Shown one piece after another: positions 2,539 through 42,613 of a stretch of DNA of 55,295 bases. The first letter of the stretch is position 1, and the number at the start of each line of letters is the position of its first letter. Below the pieces are notes generated by a model. That model had not been told where the DNA came from. It saw only the letters and a list, made by a program, of their open reading frames with translations, and searched no databases. The position numbers and the translations under genes were made by a program. The DNA is from a virus: positions 1-55,295 of the IMG/VR virus record IMGVR_UViG_3300005935_000016; one strand, written 5' to 3'.

Positions 2539-3177
2539 ATGAAAGAACAAACAAAATTTTTAACTGAACATTGCGAGTTTAATAATCCGTGTGATTGTTA
2601 TGTCTTGTTAGCTGTCAGTAGAAAAAAGGACACTCCCGAAATTACTAACTCTCAAGAAATTGTATTTAGGGACGTTATTAAAAAAGAAGAAGATATTATT
2701 AAAAAGTACAACACAATGTCAGCACAAATTAAAAATTATAAAGACGAGAACGATAAGTCATATCCGTTTTATTTGTATGTATCGCTTAATGCAAGGGATG
2801 CTAAGAAAGCGACGTTCTTGTTAATGAAGAAAATATTACACTGGATCGAGGAAGAAGGCAAAGGTGTCGACAATAGTAAAATGTTTAAGAAGTTGTATGG
2901 TCACTTTTACTCGACGTTGATGACTAAAGAATGTAAAACTTCGAGTCAGAAATATTTTATGATAGATTATGATAGCAAAAAAGGTGTTATTGAATTTAGC
3001 GACAAATTGGAAAAATTTGCCGAAGTTATCGAAGGCCATGTGACAAGAAATGGTTACCATATAAAGACGAAGCCATTTGATAGAAGGAAACTAGAAGAAT
3101 TAAAAAAAGAGTATCCTGTAGAAGTTAAAACAGATGCTAATATTTTTGTAGAGTATATAGAAAATGGGGAGAAATAG
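2539..3177 (+). CDS. Hypothetical protein, 212 aa, next to RNA ligase
   Basis: Mixed alpha/beta protein with two N-terminal cysteines (CDCY near 19-21) and a central YPFYLYVSLNARDAKKA strand-helix segment. I do not recognise a family. It ends two bases before the RNA ligase start, which argues for co-expression and perhaps a shared RNA-repair task. There is no membrane segment. Confidence 0.7.
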   Translation: MKEQTKFLTEHCEFNNPCDCYVLLAVSRKKDTPEITNSQEIVFRDVIKKEEDIIKKYNTMSAQIKNYKDENDKSYPFYLYVSLNARDAKKATFLLMKKILHWIEEEGKGVDNSKMFKKLYGHFYSTLMTKECKTSSQKYFMIDYDSKKGVIEFSDKLEKFAEVIEGHVTRNGYHIKTKPFDRRKLEELKKEYPVEVKTDANIFVEYIENGEK

Positions 3178-3179
3178 AA

Positions 3180-4037
3180 ATGGGATACATGCACATAGAT
3201 AATTTATATAAGAATATAGACATAATGAATTTCAAAGAATGCTATGCATTAGAAAAAATTCACGGTACATCTGCACACATCGGATGGAATCACGAACACC
3301 AAGAAATTAGATATTTTTCTGGTGGAGAAAAACATGAGAAATTTGTAAAACTTTTCGACCATGCACATTTGAAAACTAGGTTTTGCCAAGAATTTCCGGA
3401 CGTGAACGTCGTTTTGCATGGTGAAGCATATGGTGGGAAGCAACAGGGGATGTCTGAAACTTATGGAAAGGAATTAAAGTTTATTGTGTTCGATGTAAAG
3501 ATTGGAGAGACTTGGTTAGACGTGATAAACGCTGAAGATGTTACTAAAAAAATGGGATTGGAATTTGTAGATTATGTTCAGATTAAAACCGACTTGGAAT
3601 TGATTGATGCTGAGAGAGATAAACCATCCACTCAAGCTAAAAGAAACGGGGTAGTAGAAGATAAATTAAGAGAAGGTGTTGTTTTAAGACCTTTAACCGA
3701 ATGCACAAAAAGCAATGGAAAAAGAATAATCGTAAAACACAAACGAGACGAATTCAAAGAAACAAAAACCAAAAGAGAAGTCGACCCAGAAAAACTTAGA
3801 ATATTAAAAGAATCTAAAAAAATAGCAGAAGAATGGGTTACCCCTATGAGATTAAATCATGTATTAGACAAATTGAATAACCCCACAGAAATAGAACAGG
3901 TTAGAAAAGTTATAAGTGCAATGATTGAAGACGTATTAAGAGAAGCCAAAGGAGAAATAGTTGAATCTCAAATGGCTAAAAGTGCTATAGCAAAAGAAAC
4001 TGCACGATTATACAAATTAAGGATATCCAAGGTATAA
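3180..4037 (+). CDS. RNA ligase, Rnl2-like nucleotidyltransferase
   Basis: 285 aa. Joins RNA ends by way of an enzyme-AMP intermediate. All core motifs of the covalent nucleotidyltransferase superfamily are visible in order: motif I EKIHGTSA with the lysine to be adenylylated at K26, motif III VLHGEAYGG (78-86), motif IIIa FIVFDV (101-106), motif IV EGVVLRP (165-171) and motif V IIVKHK (183-188). A helical tail of about 95 residues follows, as in Rnl2-type ligases. Phage RNA ligases commonly repair tRNAs cut by host defence nucleases. The next recognisable gene is a CCA-adding-type enzyme, which supports tRNA repair here; that function is inferred. Confidence 0.93.
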   Translation: MGYMHIDNLYKNIDIMNFKECYALEKIHGTSAHIGWNHEHQEIRYFSGGEKHEKFVKLFDHAHLKTRFCQEFPDVNVVLHGEAYGGKQQGMSETYGKELKFIVFDVKIGETWLDVINAEDVTKKMGLEFVDYVQIKTDLELIDAERDKPSTQAKRNGVVEDKLREGVVLRPLTECTKSNGKRIIVKHKRDEFKETKTKREVDPEKLRILKESKKIAEEWVTPMRLNHVLDKLNNPTEIEQVRKVISAMIEDVLREAKGEIVESQMAKSAIAKETARLYKLRISKV

Positions 4038-4041
4038 TAAA

Positions 4042-4338
4042 ATGAGAGAAGAATTAATGACAAATGAATATTATGATAAATTTAGTGCTAGAAAAATATG
4101 TAAAGTGTTTGAAATTAAGTTCGAGCTATTCGAAGTTCCAGAAATCGAGCTTGAACGTATTAGAGGGGAGGTATTTTTAGCAATTCATTTTAAAAACCGG
4201 ATTATAAGAATATCTCACAACCGAACGATGAATTTTTTAAAATCAAATAACTATGATCATTTTAGAAAATATGATAATTGCGACAATCCAGGAAAAGGAA
4301 AGTATATTTGGGCAGTTAGATATGAGGTAGACAAATGA
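4042..4338 (+). CDS. Small hypothetical protein between RNA ligase and CCA-adding-type enzyme
   Basis: 98 aa, mixed alpha/beta and basic, no recognised motif. Its TGA overlaps the ATG of the next gene (ATGA), showing translational coupling with the nucleotidyltransferase. A second in-frame ATG at 4057 could be the real start because no clear SD precedes 4042. Confidence 0.65.
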   Translation: MREELMTNEYYDKFSARKICKVFEIKFELFEVPEIELERIRGEVFLAIHFKNRIIRISHNRTMNFLKSNNYDHFRKYDNCDNPGKGKYIWAVRYEVDK

Positions 4339-4748
4339 AACTAAAACAATTATTAGAAGAAGTAACAAAAATGATGCACCCTCACCCAGTATACGCAGTC
4401 GGTGGATGTGTTAGAGACTACATCTTAGAAATCGAACCGAAAGATTATGATTTTTGTACACCAGCTGAACCAGACGAAATAGAAAGATTAGTTAAGGAAG
4501 CTAAAAGACGTGCTTATTGTGTCGGGAAAAGGTTTGGAACTATTGGATGTAAGATTGATGGTGAGATGATAGAGATAACTACTTTCAGAACTGAAAAATA
4601 TGAAGAAGGAAACAGGAAACCTAAAGTTGAGTATGTGACTAACATTCACGAAGACTTAAGTAGACGTGACTTCACCATCAACTCCATGTGTATTTCTGGA
4701 AAAAAATTATTAAAACTTATAAAGATGAGGGAGAGAAAAGATGAGTAA
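4335..4748 (+). CDS. CCA-adding enzyme / poly(A) polymerase family, N-terminal catalytic fragment (split gene)
   Basis: 137 aa. Catalytic head of a class II (bacterial-type) tRNA nucleotidyltransferase: AVGGCVRD (21-28) binds the nucleotide, the metal-binding DYD is at 37-39, and RRDFTINSM (110-118) is the conserved end of the palm. After residue 121 the family pattern is lost and replaced by a Lys-rich tail (about 16 aa), while the rest of the enzyme is encoded from 5435 in another frame. An HNH endonuclease gene lies between and overlaps both parts. Whether the two peptides assemble into an active enzyme is unknown. Archaeal hosts normally use class I enzymes, so this gene was probably acquired from a bacterial or phage source. 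Confidence 0.88.
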   Translation: MKLKQLLEEVTKMMHPHPVYAVGGCVRDYILEIEPKDYDFCTPAEPDEIERLVKEAKRRAYCVGKRFGTIGCKIDGEMIEITTFRTEKYEEGNRKPKVEYVTNIHEDLSRRDFTINSMCISGKKLLKLIKMRERKDE

Positions 4749-5451
4749 TTTTTGTGATTGTGGATGTGGTCTAGAAACTAAAAAATATCGTGGAAAATAC
4801 AATAGATTTATTGTTGGCCATAATAATAATTTTAAAAAAGGCCATAATATGAATATTGACAGAATACCTTAGAATAAAGGATTAACAAAAGAAACAGATG
4901 AGAGAGTTAGAAATTATGGAATAACTGAAAGAAAAACCAAGAAAAAAATGTATAGCAATGGAGAATTAACAACATGGAACAAAGGTTTGACCAAAGGAAC
5001 AGATGAGAGAGTAAAAAAAAGTGCAAAAAATTATCCCCAAAAAAGGAAATCCCCAACATATTCTCAAGAAGAATTGAAAAGAAGACAAAATAGTTTTAGA
5101 GGGAAAAATAATCCAAATTTTAATCCAGATAAATCAGAATTTACTAAATATAAATTACAATGCAGATTTAATTTCAATCCAGGTTTATTTCCAGATGAGT
5201 TTGATATTACTAAAATTAGAAACATGTTTCATCCGACTAAAAACAAAACAGGTTATACGATGGATCACATGTTATCTATTTACGATGGCTTTACTAATAA
5301 TATAGACTCTAACATATTAAAACATCCGGCAAATTGTAATATATTATTACATAGAGAAAATTCCAGAAAAAACAAAAATTCATCAATAACTTTAAAACAA
5401 TTAAATAAAAAAATTATAACATGGGGGAAAAATTATGGTGAATATAACTAG
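4741..5451 (+). pseudogene. HNH homing endonuclease with NUMOD3-like repeats, interrupted by an in-frame TAG
   Basis: Reading from ATG 4741 gives an N-terminal Cys cluster (CDCGCG near 5-10, then FIVGHN), a TAG at 4870-4872, then NKGLTKETDERV and, from 4948, a second WNKGLTKGTDERV copy. The C-terminus holds an HNH-type nuclease (MDHMLSIYDGF, HPANCNILLH). The TAG sits where PWNKG is expected, so a TGG to TAG change explains it. An ATG at 4948 could yield a 167-aa product keeping one NUMOD3-like unit and the nuclease. The gene overlaps the upstream CCA fragment by 8 bases and the downstream one by 17, leaving no room for a group I intron. It looks like a free-standing homing gene inserted in the CCA-type gene. 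Confidence 0.85.
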
Positions 5452-6127
5452 AGAAGATATTATAGAATTTTGTTTGATAGACCCATTTAATGGTAGACAA
5501 GATTTAGAAAAAGGGATAATAAGAGCAGTAGGAATACCAAAACATCGTTTCAAGGAAGATAGTTTGCGTATATTGAGAGCGATTAGATTCGCGTCCAGAT
5601 TCGGTTTTGAAATAGAAGAAACTACTTACAAAAAGATGGGACGAATGTCAGTAAAGTTGTTAGAAATTTCTAAAGAAAGATGGATGATGGAAATGGACAA
5701 AATTTTAATGACCGACCATGTTCGAAATGGGCTAGAGAACTTATGGAAGTGCAACTGTTTTAAATATATGATACCAGAGTTATCATTACAATTTGATTAT
5801 GAACAAAACAGTCAGTATCACGATTACACTTTAGACGAACACACTATGAATGTCGTTGAAGATTGTCCTAAAGATTTAAACTTGAGATGGGCGGCTTTGT
5901 TGCACGACATCGGTAAACCTTTCGTAAGAACAAATAAAACAGTTAACGATGTATTCAAATCCAACTATGTAGATCACGAAGTATTGGGAGCAGACATGAT
6001 ATTGAAATTATCACGACATCTTAAATGGTCGAAGGATAGAACTAACACAGTCGTAGACTTAGTAAAAAATCACTTGAAGGAAGATAGTCCACTAAGAAAA
6101 TACGACAACATGAGAAAATTAAAATGA
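5435..6127 (+). CDS. CCA-adding enzyme family, C-terminal fragment with HD domain (split gene)
   Basis: 230 aa. It continues the class II nucleotidyltransferase: IDPFNGRQDL (15-24), the base-selecting EDSLRILRAIRFASRFGF helix (41-58), then an HD phosphohydrolase domain with H136, the H157-D158 pair (LLHDIGKP) and H181. HD domains in this family have phosphatase or phosphodiesterase activity on tRNA 3' ends. Its ATG at 5435 lies inside the 3' end of the HNH gene and is preceded by GGGGG with suitable spacing, so it is probably translated by coupling. The C-terminus at K230 is somewhat short compared with bacterial full-length enzymes. Confidence 0.87.
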   Translation: MVNITREDIIEFCLIDPFNGRQDLEKGIIRAVGIPKHRFKEDSLRILRAIRFASRFGFEIEETTYKKMGRMSVKLLEISKERWMMEMDKILMTDHVRNGLENLWKCNCFKYMIPELSLQFDYEQNSQYHDYTLDEHTMNVVEDCPKDLNLRWAALLHDIGKPFVRTNKTVNDVFKSNYVDHEVLGADMILKLSRHLKWSKDRTNTVVDLVKNHLKEDSPLRKYDNMRKLK

Positions 6128-9173: not shown

Positions 9174-9701
9174 ATGAAATATTTTAGTTTATTTAGTGGA
9201 ATAGGTGGGTTTGAAAAAGCCATAGAAACAATAATACCAGATGCAAAATGTGTAGGATATTCAGAAATAGATAAGTATGCTATAAAAACATACGAGAAAA
9301 ATTTTGGACTAGGAGTCAAAAACTACGGAGACATAACAACAATTAACGTAGGTGAATTACCAGATTTCGATTTGTTATTAGGTGGAGTACCATGTCAAAG
9401 TTGGTCTATCGCAGGAAAACGAAAAGGGTTCGAAGACATTAGAGGAACAATGTGGTTTGAATCTTTTAAAATTTTAAAAGAAAAACAACCTAAATATTTT
9501 ATATTTGAAAATGTTAAAGGATTATTATCTCACGATAAGGGGAATAGTTTCGAACGGTTGTGTGAACATATGTGTAGTTTAGGATATGTAATAGATTTCA
9601 CTGTGTTAAACTCTAAAAACTTAGGCGTTCCACAAAATCGAGAACGTGTTTTTATTTGGGGAATAAGAGGTGACTTACTTGACAAAGAACAAATTATATG
9701 A
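9174..9701 (+). CDS. DNA cytosine-C5 methyltransferase, N-terminal fragment (split gene)
   Basis: 175 aa with SD AGAGGTGAT before the ATG. Motif I FSLFSGIGGFEKA (4-16) binds SAM, motif IV GGVPCQSWS holds the nucleophile C74, motif VI ENV is at 112-114 and motif VIII QNRER at 154-158. The family sequence stops after FIWGIRGD, just before the target recognition domain, which is encoded after the HNH gene. Methylation would protect viral DNA from host restriction. The break falls between motifs VIII and IX, a permissive linker site, so reassembly of the two fragments is conceivable. Confidence 0.92.
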   Translation: MKYFSLFSGIGGFEKAIETIIPDAKCVGYSEIDKYAIKTYEKNFGLGVKNYGDITTINVGELPDFDLLLGGVPCQSWSIAGKRKGFEDIRGTMWFESFKILKEKQPKYFIFENVKGLLSHDKGNSFERLCEHMCSLGYVIDFTVLNSKNLGVPQNRERVFIWGIRGDLLDKEQII

Positions 9702-10098
9702 AGAGATGTATTTAAAATATCAAGACGGTTATTCGTTAGCCCAAGTTGGTGATGTGTTTGGAATGACTAGACAGTCCGTTTATTGTGGATTCAAAAGAAG
9801 AAAATTTATTTTAAGAATTAAAAAGAAATTAAAACATCTGATGTTTAATAATGTAAAATTTACTCCACAAAACAATGGATATTATAGGAATACAAACAGA
9901 AAAAAGGATTGCTTAATGCACCGATATGTTTGGGAATTTCACAATGGTAATATACCAAAAGGGTTTGACATACACCACAAAGATAGAGATAAATCGAATA
10001 ACATAATTAAAAATTTGGAGATGATAGAACATGGAAAACATGCCAGTAAATATTCAACCGGAAATAATCAATATACTAAAAAAATGGAGGAACAATAG
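9679..10098 (+). CDS. HNH homing endonuclease with N-terminal helix-turn-helix
   Basis: About 139 aa. I place the start at TTG 9679, six bases after AGAGGTG; GTG 9670 is an alternative. A helix-turn-helix (SLAQVGDVFGMTRQSVYCGF) is followed by an HNH nuclease: LMHRYVWEFHNG, FDIHHKDRDKSNN and NLEMIEHGKHASKY. This is the common free-standing phage homing endonuclease layout. It overlaps the end of the upstream methyltransferase fragment by about 23 bases and stops 3 bases before the downstream fragment, so it is wedged into one ancestral methyltransferase gene without intron sequence around it. Confidence 0.9.
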   Translation: MTKNKLYEEMYLKYQDGYSLAQVGDVFGMTRQSVYCGFKRRKFILRIKKKLKHLMFNNVKFTPQNNGYYRNTNRKKDCLMHRYVWEFHNGNIPKGFDIHHKDRDKSNNIIKNLEMIEHGKHASKYSTGNNQYTKKMEEQ

Positions 10099-10101
10099 CG
10101 A

Positions 10102-10836
10102 ATGGAAAATGAAAAAGAGACTGTTAAACAACTCAAACATTCAGATGTGGTGCAGTCCATTACAACAAATAAAGATAATGAGCGAGTTAAGTCCTATTAT
10201 GACAACATTATCGGAAGTTTTAGAGGAACAAGTGGATCAGAAATATTACCTTTCAGAGAAAGCGATAAATCGACTAACAAGACACACGGGATTCAAGAGC
10301 AAATTGCATCAACTCTAACTACTGCTGAAATGAAAGTAGGCAGGGGTATGAATATGATTGCAGATTTTCGTTACGATGAAGGATTACGAATACGAAAAAA
10401 CAATATTACTCCATGTTTATGTGCTACAAATCATTCTGAAAATGATCCTAGCTCAATGCCTGGAATTGTAATAAGACATCCTTTAAAATTTATTAACAGA
10501 AACCAAAAAAATATAAAAGGAGATTACACATACACGGTAGATTCAGCAAACACTGGAGGAGTGATGATACAATCACATTGTCCTAGAAGTGGCAATCCTA
10601 ATAAAGGCGGTACGGGTTTATTAGAATCATCAAAACATTGTTTTACTTTAGATCGATCACCATATTATGTTAATAAAATTAGACGATTAACACCAACAGA
10701 ATGCGAACGATTACAAGGGTTTCCTGATGGTTGGACTAACAGTGTATCTGACACGCAAAGATATAAACAGTGTGGCAACGCAGTAACAGTTAGTGTGATT
10801 GAAACCATTATGACAAAACTAAAAGAGGTATTATAA
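10102..10836 (+). CDS. DNA cytosine-C5 methyltransferase, C-terminal fragment (frameshifted near its start)
   Basis: 244 aa as read from ATG 10102. It carries motif IX RRLTPTECERLQGFPDGW and motif X QCGNAVTV at the C-terminus, with the target recognition domain before them. The family-like sequence at the beginning is in a different frame (see 10109-10318), so residues 1 to about 62 of this reading are probably artefactual. Restoring one base in the G run at 10288-10290 joins the two frames. Either the gene is decaying or the consensus lost a base. Confidence 0.8.
   Translation: MENEKETVKQLKHSDVVQSITTNKDNERVKSYYDNIIGSFRGTSGSEILPFRESDKSTNKTHGIQEQIASTLTTAEMKVGRGMNMIADFRYDEGLRIRKNNITPCLCATNHSENDPSSMPGIVIRHPLKFINRNQKNIKGDYTYTVDSANTGGVMIQSHCPRSGNPNKGGTGLLESSKHCFTLDRSPYYVNKIRRLTPTECERLQGFPDGWTNSVSDTQRYKQCGNAVTVSVIETIMTKLKEVL
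10109..10318 (+). pseudogene. Out-of-frame first part of the methyltransferase C-terminal fragment
   Basis: From ATG 10109 this frame reads a segment typical of C5 methyltransferases, LSEVLEEQVDQKYYLSEKAI followed by NRLTRHTG, then leaves the family pattern and stops at 10318. The downstream family sequence (IQEQIASTLTTAEM) continues in the other frame from about 10291. One extra G at GGG 10288-10290 would give RLTRHTGIQEQIASTLT as one reading frame. Confidence 0.7.
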
Positions 10837-41854: not shown

Positions 41855-42613
41855 TTATACTGGATTTCCGTCTGCTTTCCATGCAAACAGTTTTGATGGA
41901 TCTGAACTTTCTACTCCGAATGATCCAGCTTGTGTGTAAATCAAACCAAATGATGTTCCTAAAGCCCCTGATCCAGCGTTAACCGATACTATTGGTGCGT
42001 CGAAAAATGGTGTTCCGAATACTACATCTAGTTTACTTCCAGCTCCTGTTTCTCCGGTAGCTCTGAGGGTTGTAGTTTGTGTCCATGCTGTTGGACTTCC
42101 GTTGAGTGCAGTCCGTGGCATTCTGTGAACACCTGCTTCAGAAATGTTAGATCCTTGTATATCACCTGTTGAATAAACTTGAGCTCCTGAGATCATTACG
42201 TCTCCAAACACTCTACCTGCTTCTACACTTCCTGTTGCGAATACATTCAATCCTGATACATGTGTTGCTCCAATTACTGTGTCACCAGTCACGCTTGCGT
42301 TTGCGTAAACGTTGTTTCCTGATACATGTGTTGCTCCAATTACTGTGTCACCAGTCACGCTTGCGTTTGCGTAAACGTTGTTTCCTGAAACCATTACGTC
42401 TGCTACAACTTTGTCTGCTTGTACACTGCCTGCTGCGAATACATTAGTTCCGCTTATGGTTGGTGTCGTGAATGATGTTGTTGCATATATAGTTGTACCA
42501 CTAATTGTTGCTGATTGCACACTAGTTGCACCATAAACATTAGTTCCGCTAATAACCGCTGTTGAGGTTACTGCTTGATTTACTTCTTCAAATCCTAATC
42601 CGTCTGTTGTCAT
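41855..42613 (-). CDS. Head fibre / repeat-containing virion protein
   Basis: 252 aa. The first 160 residues are repeats of about 22 with a core such as SGNNVYANASVTGDTVIGAT, suggesting a trimeric beta-helix shaft. A C-terminal knob of about 90 residues follows (TTLRATGETGAGSKLDVVFG). Its place directly after the capsid gene suggests a head fibre. SD GGAGG. A terminator-like T tract lies on both sides. Confidence 0.65.
   Translation of the reverse strand: MTTDGLGFEEVNQAVTSTAVISGTNVYGATSVQSATISGTTIYATTSFTTPTISGTNVFAAGSVQADKVVADVMVSGNNVYANASVTGDTVIGATHVSGNNVYANASVTGDTVIGATHVSGLNVFATGSVEAGRVFGDVMISGAQVYSTGDIQGSNISEAGVHRMPRTALNGSPTAWTQTTTLRATGETGAGSKLDVVFGTPFFDAPIVSVNAGSGALGTSFGLIYTQAGSFGVESSDPSKLFAWKADGNPV
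42252..42383 (-). repeat. Perfect 66-bp tandem repeat in the fibre gene
   Basis: Two adjacent 66-bp units (22 codons) are identical at the base level as far as I can see. Flanking units are diverged versions of the same 22-residue pattern, so the array expands by recent duplication. Confidence 0.8.

What the first reader, a model, noticed from the sequence alone, without database searches (positions are those of the whole stretch)
4335..6127. CCA-adding-type enzyme split in two by a free-standing HNH gene
The catalytic head (4335-4748) and the base-selection/HD part (5435-6127) of one class II nucleotidyltransferase lie in different frames with an HNH gene between that overlaps both. There is no space for a group I intron or intein. 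A known parallel is the ribonucleotide reductase gene nrdA of Aeromonas phage Aeh1, split by the HNH gene mobE, whose two peptides form an active enzyme. Here each half keeps its own start, and the second has its SD inside the HNH gene, which suggests a two-subunit enzyme rather than decay.
Basis: partly seen in the sequence, partly recalled or inferred. Interest (0 to 1): 0.75.

Follow-up and report, generated by a model that had tools for sequence, protein, structure and literature searches.

The report
tRNA-end enzyme split by endonuclease gene
In this uncultivated virus, the gene for an enzyme that builds or repairs the 3' ends of tRNAs has been cut in two by an inserted selfish DNA-cutting gene; both pieces look intact enough to be made separately and rejoin as a two-chain enzyme, while the invader's own reading frame is already broken.

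Summary
4335-4748 encodes the head and 5435-6127 the neck plus HD region of one class II tRNA nucleotidyltransferase; an HNH cassette fills the gap. Some twenty near relatives are uninterrupted single genes (closest: L002, 66%/59% identity; L058, in a Pacearchaeota bin). Against them nothing essential is missing: the window keeps 62 of 62 invariant positions, and its end branch (0.26) is no longer than its sisters' (0.31, 0.30). The break falls at the end of the last head hairpin, just before 'DPF'. Only about 55 nt of insert lie outside the HNH frame, and Rfam finds no intron.

One correction: the HNH frame is not intact. It has an in-frame TAG at 4870-4872, so the endonuclease is probably crippled while the enzyme halves persist.

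Best reading: a two-chain enzyme like Aeh1 NrdA, newly seen for this enzyme class. This is inferred, not shown; the main rival is a very recent split gene that has not yet decayed. CCA specificity is also unproven. A second gene, a cytosine-5 methyltransferase (9174-10836), is split the same way by a different HNH gene. New member of a known kind.

The parts
4324..4328 (+). SD-like GAGGT of the N-chain
   Evidence: sequence
4335..4748 (+). N-chain: catalytic head of a class II tRNA nucleotidyltransferase (GG, DYD, RRD motifs), 137 aa; the last ~8-12 residues come from the insert
   Evidence: Pfam PF01743; intact relatives; AlphaFold of the chain alone
4709..5473 (+). Inserted segment, edges approximate (left edge 4709-4722)
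   Evidence: comparison with uninterrupted relatives
4727..4733 (+). SD-like GAGGGAG of the HNH frame
   Evidence: sequence
4741..5451 (+). HNH endonuclease frame, 236 codons, interrupted at codon 44; nuclease domain in the second half
4870..4872 (+). In-frame TAG in the HNH frame, at the first of two NKGLTK-TDERV repeats (the second repeat has TGG there)
4948..5451 (+). Open remainder of the HNH frame (167 aa) holding the HNH domain; no SD-like sequence before its start
5423..5428 (+). SD-like GGGGGA of the C-chain, inside the HNH frame
   Evidence: sequence
5435..6127 (+). C-chain: LIDPF segment, neck (KEDSLRILR) and HD region, 230 aa; first ~13 residues come from the insert
   Evidence: Pfam PF12627 and PF01966; intact relatives
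3180..4037 (+). Rnl2-like RNA ligase two genes upstream (context)
   Evidence: Pfam PF09414 E 1.7e-11; TIGR02307 below its cut-off

Best explanation
A free-standing HNH homing-endonuclease gene inserted into a viral class II tRNA nucleotidyltransferase gene, between the last hairpin of the catalytic head and the 'DPF' step into the neck. The interrupted gene now makes two polypeptides from one mRNA: the N-chain from its original start, ending at a stop just inside the insert, and the C-chain from a new start at the end of the insert with its own SD. The two chains are proposed to associate at the former head-neck connection and rebuild the active enzyme, which adds or repairs nucleotides at tRNA 3' ends. 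The HNH gene has since acquired a nonsense codon, so the fission has probably outlived an active invader. Shown: the split, its precision, the retained residues, the lack of an intron signature, the broken HNH frame. Inferred: one mRNA, expression of both chains, association, activity, substrate.
For: Uninterrupted relatives at the same site. The halves align end to end with 6ibp (N to residue 160, C from 163) and with phrog_2244 (to 103, from 108). All 62 columns invariant in 19 intact relatives are kept, and 81 of 83 columns at least 90% conserved; intact members left out in turn break 0-4 and 0-8. End branch 0.26 against 0.31 and 0.30 in the sister group. Both halves have starts and SD-like sequences and no stable fold hides that of the C-chain. 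The N-chain alone is predicted to complete its sheet with its own last two short strands (modest confidence there). Close relatives lie near tRNA genes of repair type: Thg1 and PTH2 in L002, PTH2 and RtcB in L058, PTH2 or RtcB hits near L003, L012, L023, L036. Precedent: the halves of Aeh1 NrdA and of phage 25 gp43 are active together (PMC2988022).
Against: No RNA, protein or activity data. Zero changes in 62 invariant columns only bounds neutral change to about 5% per site, so a very recent split would look the same. One contig only; near-identical sibling contigs do not cover this region. No relative shares the split, so long-term maintenance is not shown. No tRNA gene is seen in the 68 kb examined.
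Confidence: 0.62

Rival explanations
1. A recently inactivated gene: the HNH insertion destroyed the enzyme, and the halves are still open only because little time has passed.
For: No shared split in any relative; the HNH frame is otherwise open with one disabling change, which fits a short history; class II head and neck must work together.
Against: All invariant residues kept and no longer branch; both halves have usable starts, the C-chain start with an SD; a second gene in the same genome is split with both parts preserved.
Confidence: 0.22
2. Only one piece still works alone, for example the head as a minimal nucleotidyltransferase or the HD part as a phosphohydrolase, and the other is a passenger.
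For: A head-only relative of 179 aa exists in another virus (L042/L043), and L045 has head and neck without HD.
Against: Conserved residues are kept equally in both halves; the head-only relatives have not been shown to work either.
Confidence: 0.1
3. The protein is rejoined at RNA level or in translation (unrecognised intron, or ribosomal bypass), giving one chain.
For: Bypass of a short interruption is known in T4 gene 60 (general knowledge), and the Rfam library need not hold every intron type.
Against: No Rfam hit at E<=5; about 55 nt of insert outside the HNH frame; the interruption is about 760 nt; the N-terminal HNH region is alignable with the L010 protein, so it is coding by origin; both halves have their own start and stop.
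Confidence: 0.04
4. TAG is read as an amino acid in this virus's host, so the HNH gene is whole and the 'broken' frame is a false alarm; the split enzyme reading is unaffected.
For: TAG is a rare stop here (4 of 66 listed ORFs of at least 90 aa) and read-through would give a full HNH protein.
Against: ORF 2539-3177 ends in TAG with the next gene starting at 3180 and two more TAGs within 15 codons; the HNH frame itself ends in TAG at 5449-5451.
Confidence: 0.05

Closest known systems
Aeromonas phage Aeh1 nrdA split by mobE (described in PMC2988022)
   Same: Free-standing HNH gene inserted in a critical part of an enzyme gene, leaving two coding regions, with no splicing
   Different: Different host enzyme; here the HNH frame carries a stop codon; activity of the halves is not shown; no hairpin hiding the HNH SD was found
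T4 topoisomerase gene 60/39 with mobA, and gene 43A/43B of Aeromonas phage 25 (PMC2988022)
   Same: Homing-endonuclease insertion associated with a two-chain phage enzyme
   Different: Different enzymes; phage 25 carries a Seg (GIY-YIG type) gene and may have been split beforehand
Class II CCA-adding enzymes, such as 6ibp/6qy6 and 1miv
   Same: Sequence match of both halves and fold of the uninterrupted relative L002 (Foldseek E 8e-20), same motif order
   Different: Split into two chains; short C-terminus ending soon after the HD region, as in all near viral relatives; specificity unknown
Split B-type DNA polymerase of Methanobacterium and HNH-associated split cox2 of Campsomeris wasps (PMC5374615)
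   Same: Gene fission ascribed to a homing nuclease, giving complementary polypeptides
   Different: Cellular or mitochondrial genes, other enzymes

Membership tests
Class II tRNA nucleotidyltransferase / poly(A) polymerase superfamily | Head with GG, DxD and RRD motifs | tested here: met
   VGGCVRD, KDYDF and SRRDFTIN in the N-chain, invariant in relatives
Class II tRNA nucleotidyltransferase / poly(A) polymerase superfamily | Neck with EDxxR motif and RNA-binding helices | tested here: met
   KEDSLRILR and PF12627 in the C-chain
Class II tRNA nucleotidyltransferase / poly(A) polymerase superfamily | Single polypeptide | tested here: not met
   two ORFs in different frames with their own starts and stops
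CCA-adding enzyme (equivalog) | Score above a curated CCA cut-off | tested here: not met
   Intact relative P0001: 245.9 bits to TIGR02692 against 438.8, and 220.1 to NF009814 against 290; pcnB 166.7 against 305.65 is not met either
CCA-adding enzyme (equivalog) | Adds C, C, A to tRNA 3' ends | not testable with these tools
   needs an enzyme assay
Gene in pieces by free-standing homing endonuclease (Aeh1 nrdA type) | Uninterrupted orthologues; insertion without loss of conserved host codons | tested here: met
Gene in pieces by free-standing homing endonuclease (Aeh1 nrdA type) | No intron or intein around the endonuclease gene | tested here: met
   no Rfam hit; about 55 nt outside the HNH frame; frames differ and have stops
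Gene in pieces by free-standing homing endonuclease (Aeh1 nrdA type) | The two polypeptides form an active enzyme | not testable with these tools
   needs co-expression
HNH homing endonuclease | HNH catalytic residues, shared with free-standing phage genes | tested here: met
   D175, H176, N186, H195, N198 and N207 invariant with L010, GAP32_472, the pEa_SNUABM_44 gene and VR26_179; contexts
HNH homing endonuclease | Open frame able to make the whole protein | tested here: not met
   TAG at 4870-4872
HNH homing endonuclease | Site-specific cutting and homing | not testable with these tools
   needs cleavage and mixed-infection tests
Group I intron | Catalytic core recognised by a covariance model | tested here: not met

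The most novel reading that the evidence does not exclude
A working two-chain tRNA nucleotidyltransferase made by an HNH insertion, in which the split has outlived a functional endonuclease and has become a lasting property of the virus; with a second two-chain enzyme (cytosine-5 methyltransferase) made the same way in the same genome, fission by selfish genes would be a recurring source of multi-subunit enzymes in this virus.
Probability: 0.4. Interest if true: 0.6.

Novelty: new member of a known kind. Interest (0 to 1): 0.45.

Why it matters
Few enzymes are known to have been split by a homing endonuclease and still work; none that I found is a tRNA nucleotidyltransferase, a template-free polymerase whose head and neck must cooperate at each addition. 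If the chains work together, this is a natural test of how that cooperation survives a chain break, and of whether a gene fission persists after the selfish gene that caused it is itself broken.

Tried and rejected
Intron: Rfam at gathering scores and at E<=5 gave nothing. Recoded TAG: rejected because TAG ends ORF 2539-3177 cleanly. Other HNH-split nucleotidyltransferases: 37 virus loci and 32 genome loci looked at, none; the doubled annotation in Pseudaeromonas phage KLEP7 is two ORFs in one frame with no HNH gene between. Sibling contigs as population evidence: three nearly identical contigs found through TerL cover only 25.5-55.3 kb and 12.8 kb beyond the window. The scan with the C-half alone found nothing. 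HNH against PDB sequences: no hit. A hairpin hiding the HNH SD, as in Aeh1, was not found. Codon usage does not set the HNH frame apart, though its G+C is lower (26% against 34-35%). No paper on a split tRNA nucleotidyltransferase was found, within an open-access library only. A joint model of the two chains could not be run: the structure tool takes one chain.

Full report
What is there. The window is a virus record of 55,295 bases, probably a fragment, with tailed-virus structural genes (terminase, portal, HK97-type capsid and protease). On the + strand, ORF 4335-4748 matches the Pfam head domain of class II nucleotidyltransferases and ORF 5435-6127 matches the RNA-binding and HD domains that follow it. 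PHROG family 2244 (tRNA nucleotidyltransferase) is matched by the first ORF at positions 4-103 and by the second at 108-310. Between them lies an HNH frame, 4741-5451, overlapping both.

Is it one gene in two pieces? Yes. A scan of virus contigs with the first half returned eight loci (L002-L009), and in all of them the two regions follow each other directly; the seven read out are single continuous ORFs. The closest, L002, is 66% and 59% identical to the two halves. An alignment-based scan added more virus loci and, among genome bins, L058, a contig binned as Pacearchaeota. No locus is split by an HNH gene. Two virus loci (L042, L043) carry a head without neck.

Where is the break? Against the solved enzyme 6ibp the first half aligns to residue 160 and the second from 163. 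In the AlphaFold model of L002 (mean pLDDT 92.6), whose best structural matches are CCA-adding enzymes, the break corresponds to the last head hairpin (strands 122-126 and 129-133), just before the conserved DPF. The N-chain modelled alone forms two short strands there with its own residues, at modest confidence, and only its last nine residues fall below pLDDT 50. So the first half is nearly the whole head, and the LIDPF segment that leads into the neck is on the second half. The left edge of the insert is uncertain by about a dozen bases.

Is it decaying? I compared the joined halves with 19 intact relatives. Of 62 columns invariant in all of them the window keeps 62; of 83 columns at least 90% conserved it keeps 81. 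Intact members, left out in turn, break 0-4 and 0-8. In the tree the window joins L002 and L058 (support 92/89) with an end branch of 0.26 against 0.31 and 0.30. This argues against old decay. It does not exclude a very recent split: zero of 62 only bounds neutral change to roughly 5% per site (my arithmetic).

The HNH frame. Its C-terminal part has relatives among free-standing phage genes: PHROG 23051 (E 2.4e-25), a gene among tRNA genes in Cronobacter phage GAP32 and in an Erwinia phage, and a gene between tail genes of phage VR26. In L010 a relative sits between two genes, starting 2 bases after one stop and overlapping the next start. The catalytic D-H and N residues are conserved. But the window frame has a TAG at codon 44 (4870-4872), in the first of two NKGLTK-TDERV repeats; the second repeat has TGG at that place. 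TAG is a genuine though rare stop in this virus. The next start, 4948, has no SD-like sequence. The simplest reading is a recent nonsense mutation; a sequencing error or a rare variant cannot be excluded from one contig.

How it would work. Each half has an SD-like sequence at normal distance; that of the C-chain lies inside the HNH frame and is not in a stable fold. Because the HNH frame stops early, ribosomes that start on it would not reach the C-chain start, so the C-chain's own SD matters. The two chains would meet at the former head-neck link. This is inference by analogy with Aeh1 NrdA and phage 25 gp43, whose halves are active together (PMC2988022). The substrate is probably tRNA: close relatives lie near Thg1, PTH2 and RtcB genes, the window has an Rnl2-like RNA ligase two genes upstream with a 51% identical relative in the record of L017, and CCA enzymes of large phages are proposed to restore tRNA ends (PMC7824862). 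No curated cut-off for a CCA-adding enzyme or poly(A) polymerase is reached, so the specificity is open. No tRNA gene was found in the window or in the 12.8 kb by which sibling contigs extend it.

A second case in the same genome. A cytosine-5 methyltransferase is split into 9174-9701 and 10102-10836 by a different HNH gene (HNH_3, 9670-10098). Against the intact enzyme of Arthrobacter phage Pitbull the first part aligns to residue 172, and a weak match places the second from residue 170. This supports repeated HNH invasion of this virus but was followed only partly.

Verdict. The two-chain enzyme is the best supported reading (0.62); it is a new member of a known kind, the first for this enzyme class that I could find.

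Noticed in passing
window 9174-10836: A cytosine-5 DNA methyltransferase split by a different HNH gene (HNH_3): N part 9174-9701, HNH 9670-10098, C part 10102-10836. HNH gene and C part are in the same frame, separated by one TAG and one codon.
   Followed up: partly
window 9670-9701 and about 10200-10260: In the methyltransferase the tail of the N part (FIWGIRG) and the start of the C part (IIGSFRG) both resemble the same stretch of the intact enzyme; in the nucleotidyltransferase both halves carry an 'LI' at the junction. This may reflect short duplicated host sequence at the insertion edges.
   Followed up: no
L042 and L043, 2992-3531: A stand-alone class II nucleotidyltransferase head of 179 aa with the head motifs and no neck, followed by what looks like a terminase gene.
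   Followed up: partly
L002 8604-9738; L058 4474-6342: Close relatives of the enzyme lie near Thg1 and PTH2 (L002) and PTH2 and RtcB (L058), a neighbourhood typical of tRNA repair; L058 comes from a contig binned as Pacearchaeota.
   Followed up: partly
L052 9763-20000 and L053: Sibling contig G002 (99.98% identical to the window's right end over 9762 bases) extends the virus 12.8 kb beyond the window; more ORFs, no tRNA genes.
   Followed up: partly
L054 10892-10992 versus window 42235-42401: Sibling contig G003 differs from the window at a repeated stretch of ORF 41855-42613 (overlapping match pieces), which suggests variation in repeat number between strains.
   Followed up: no
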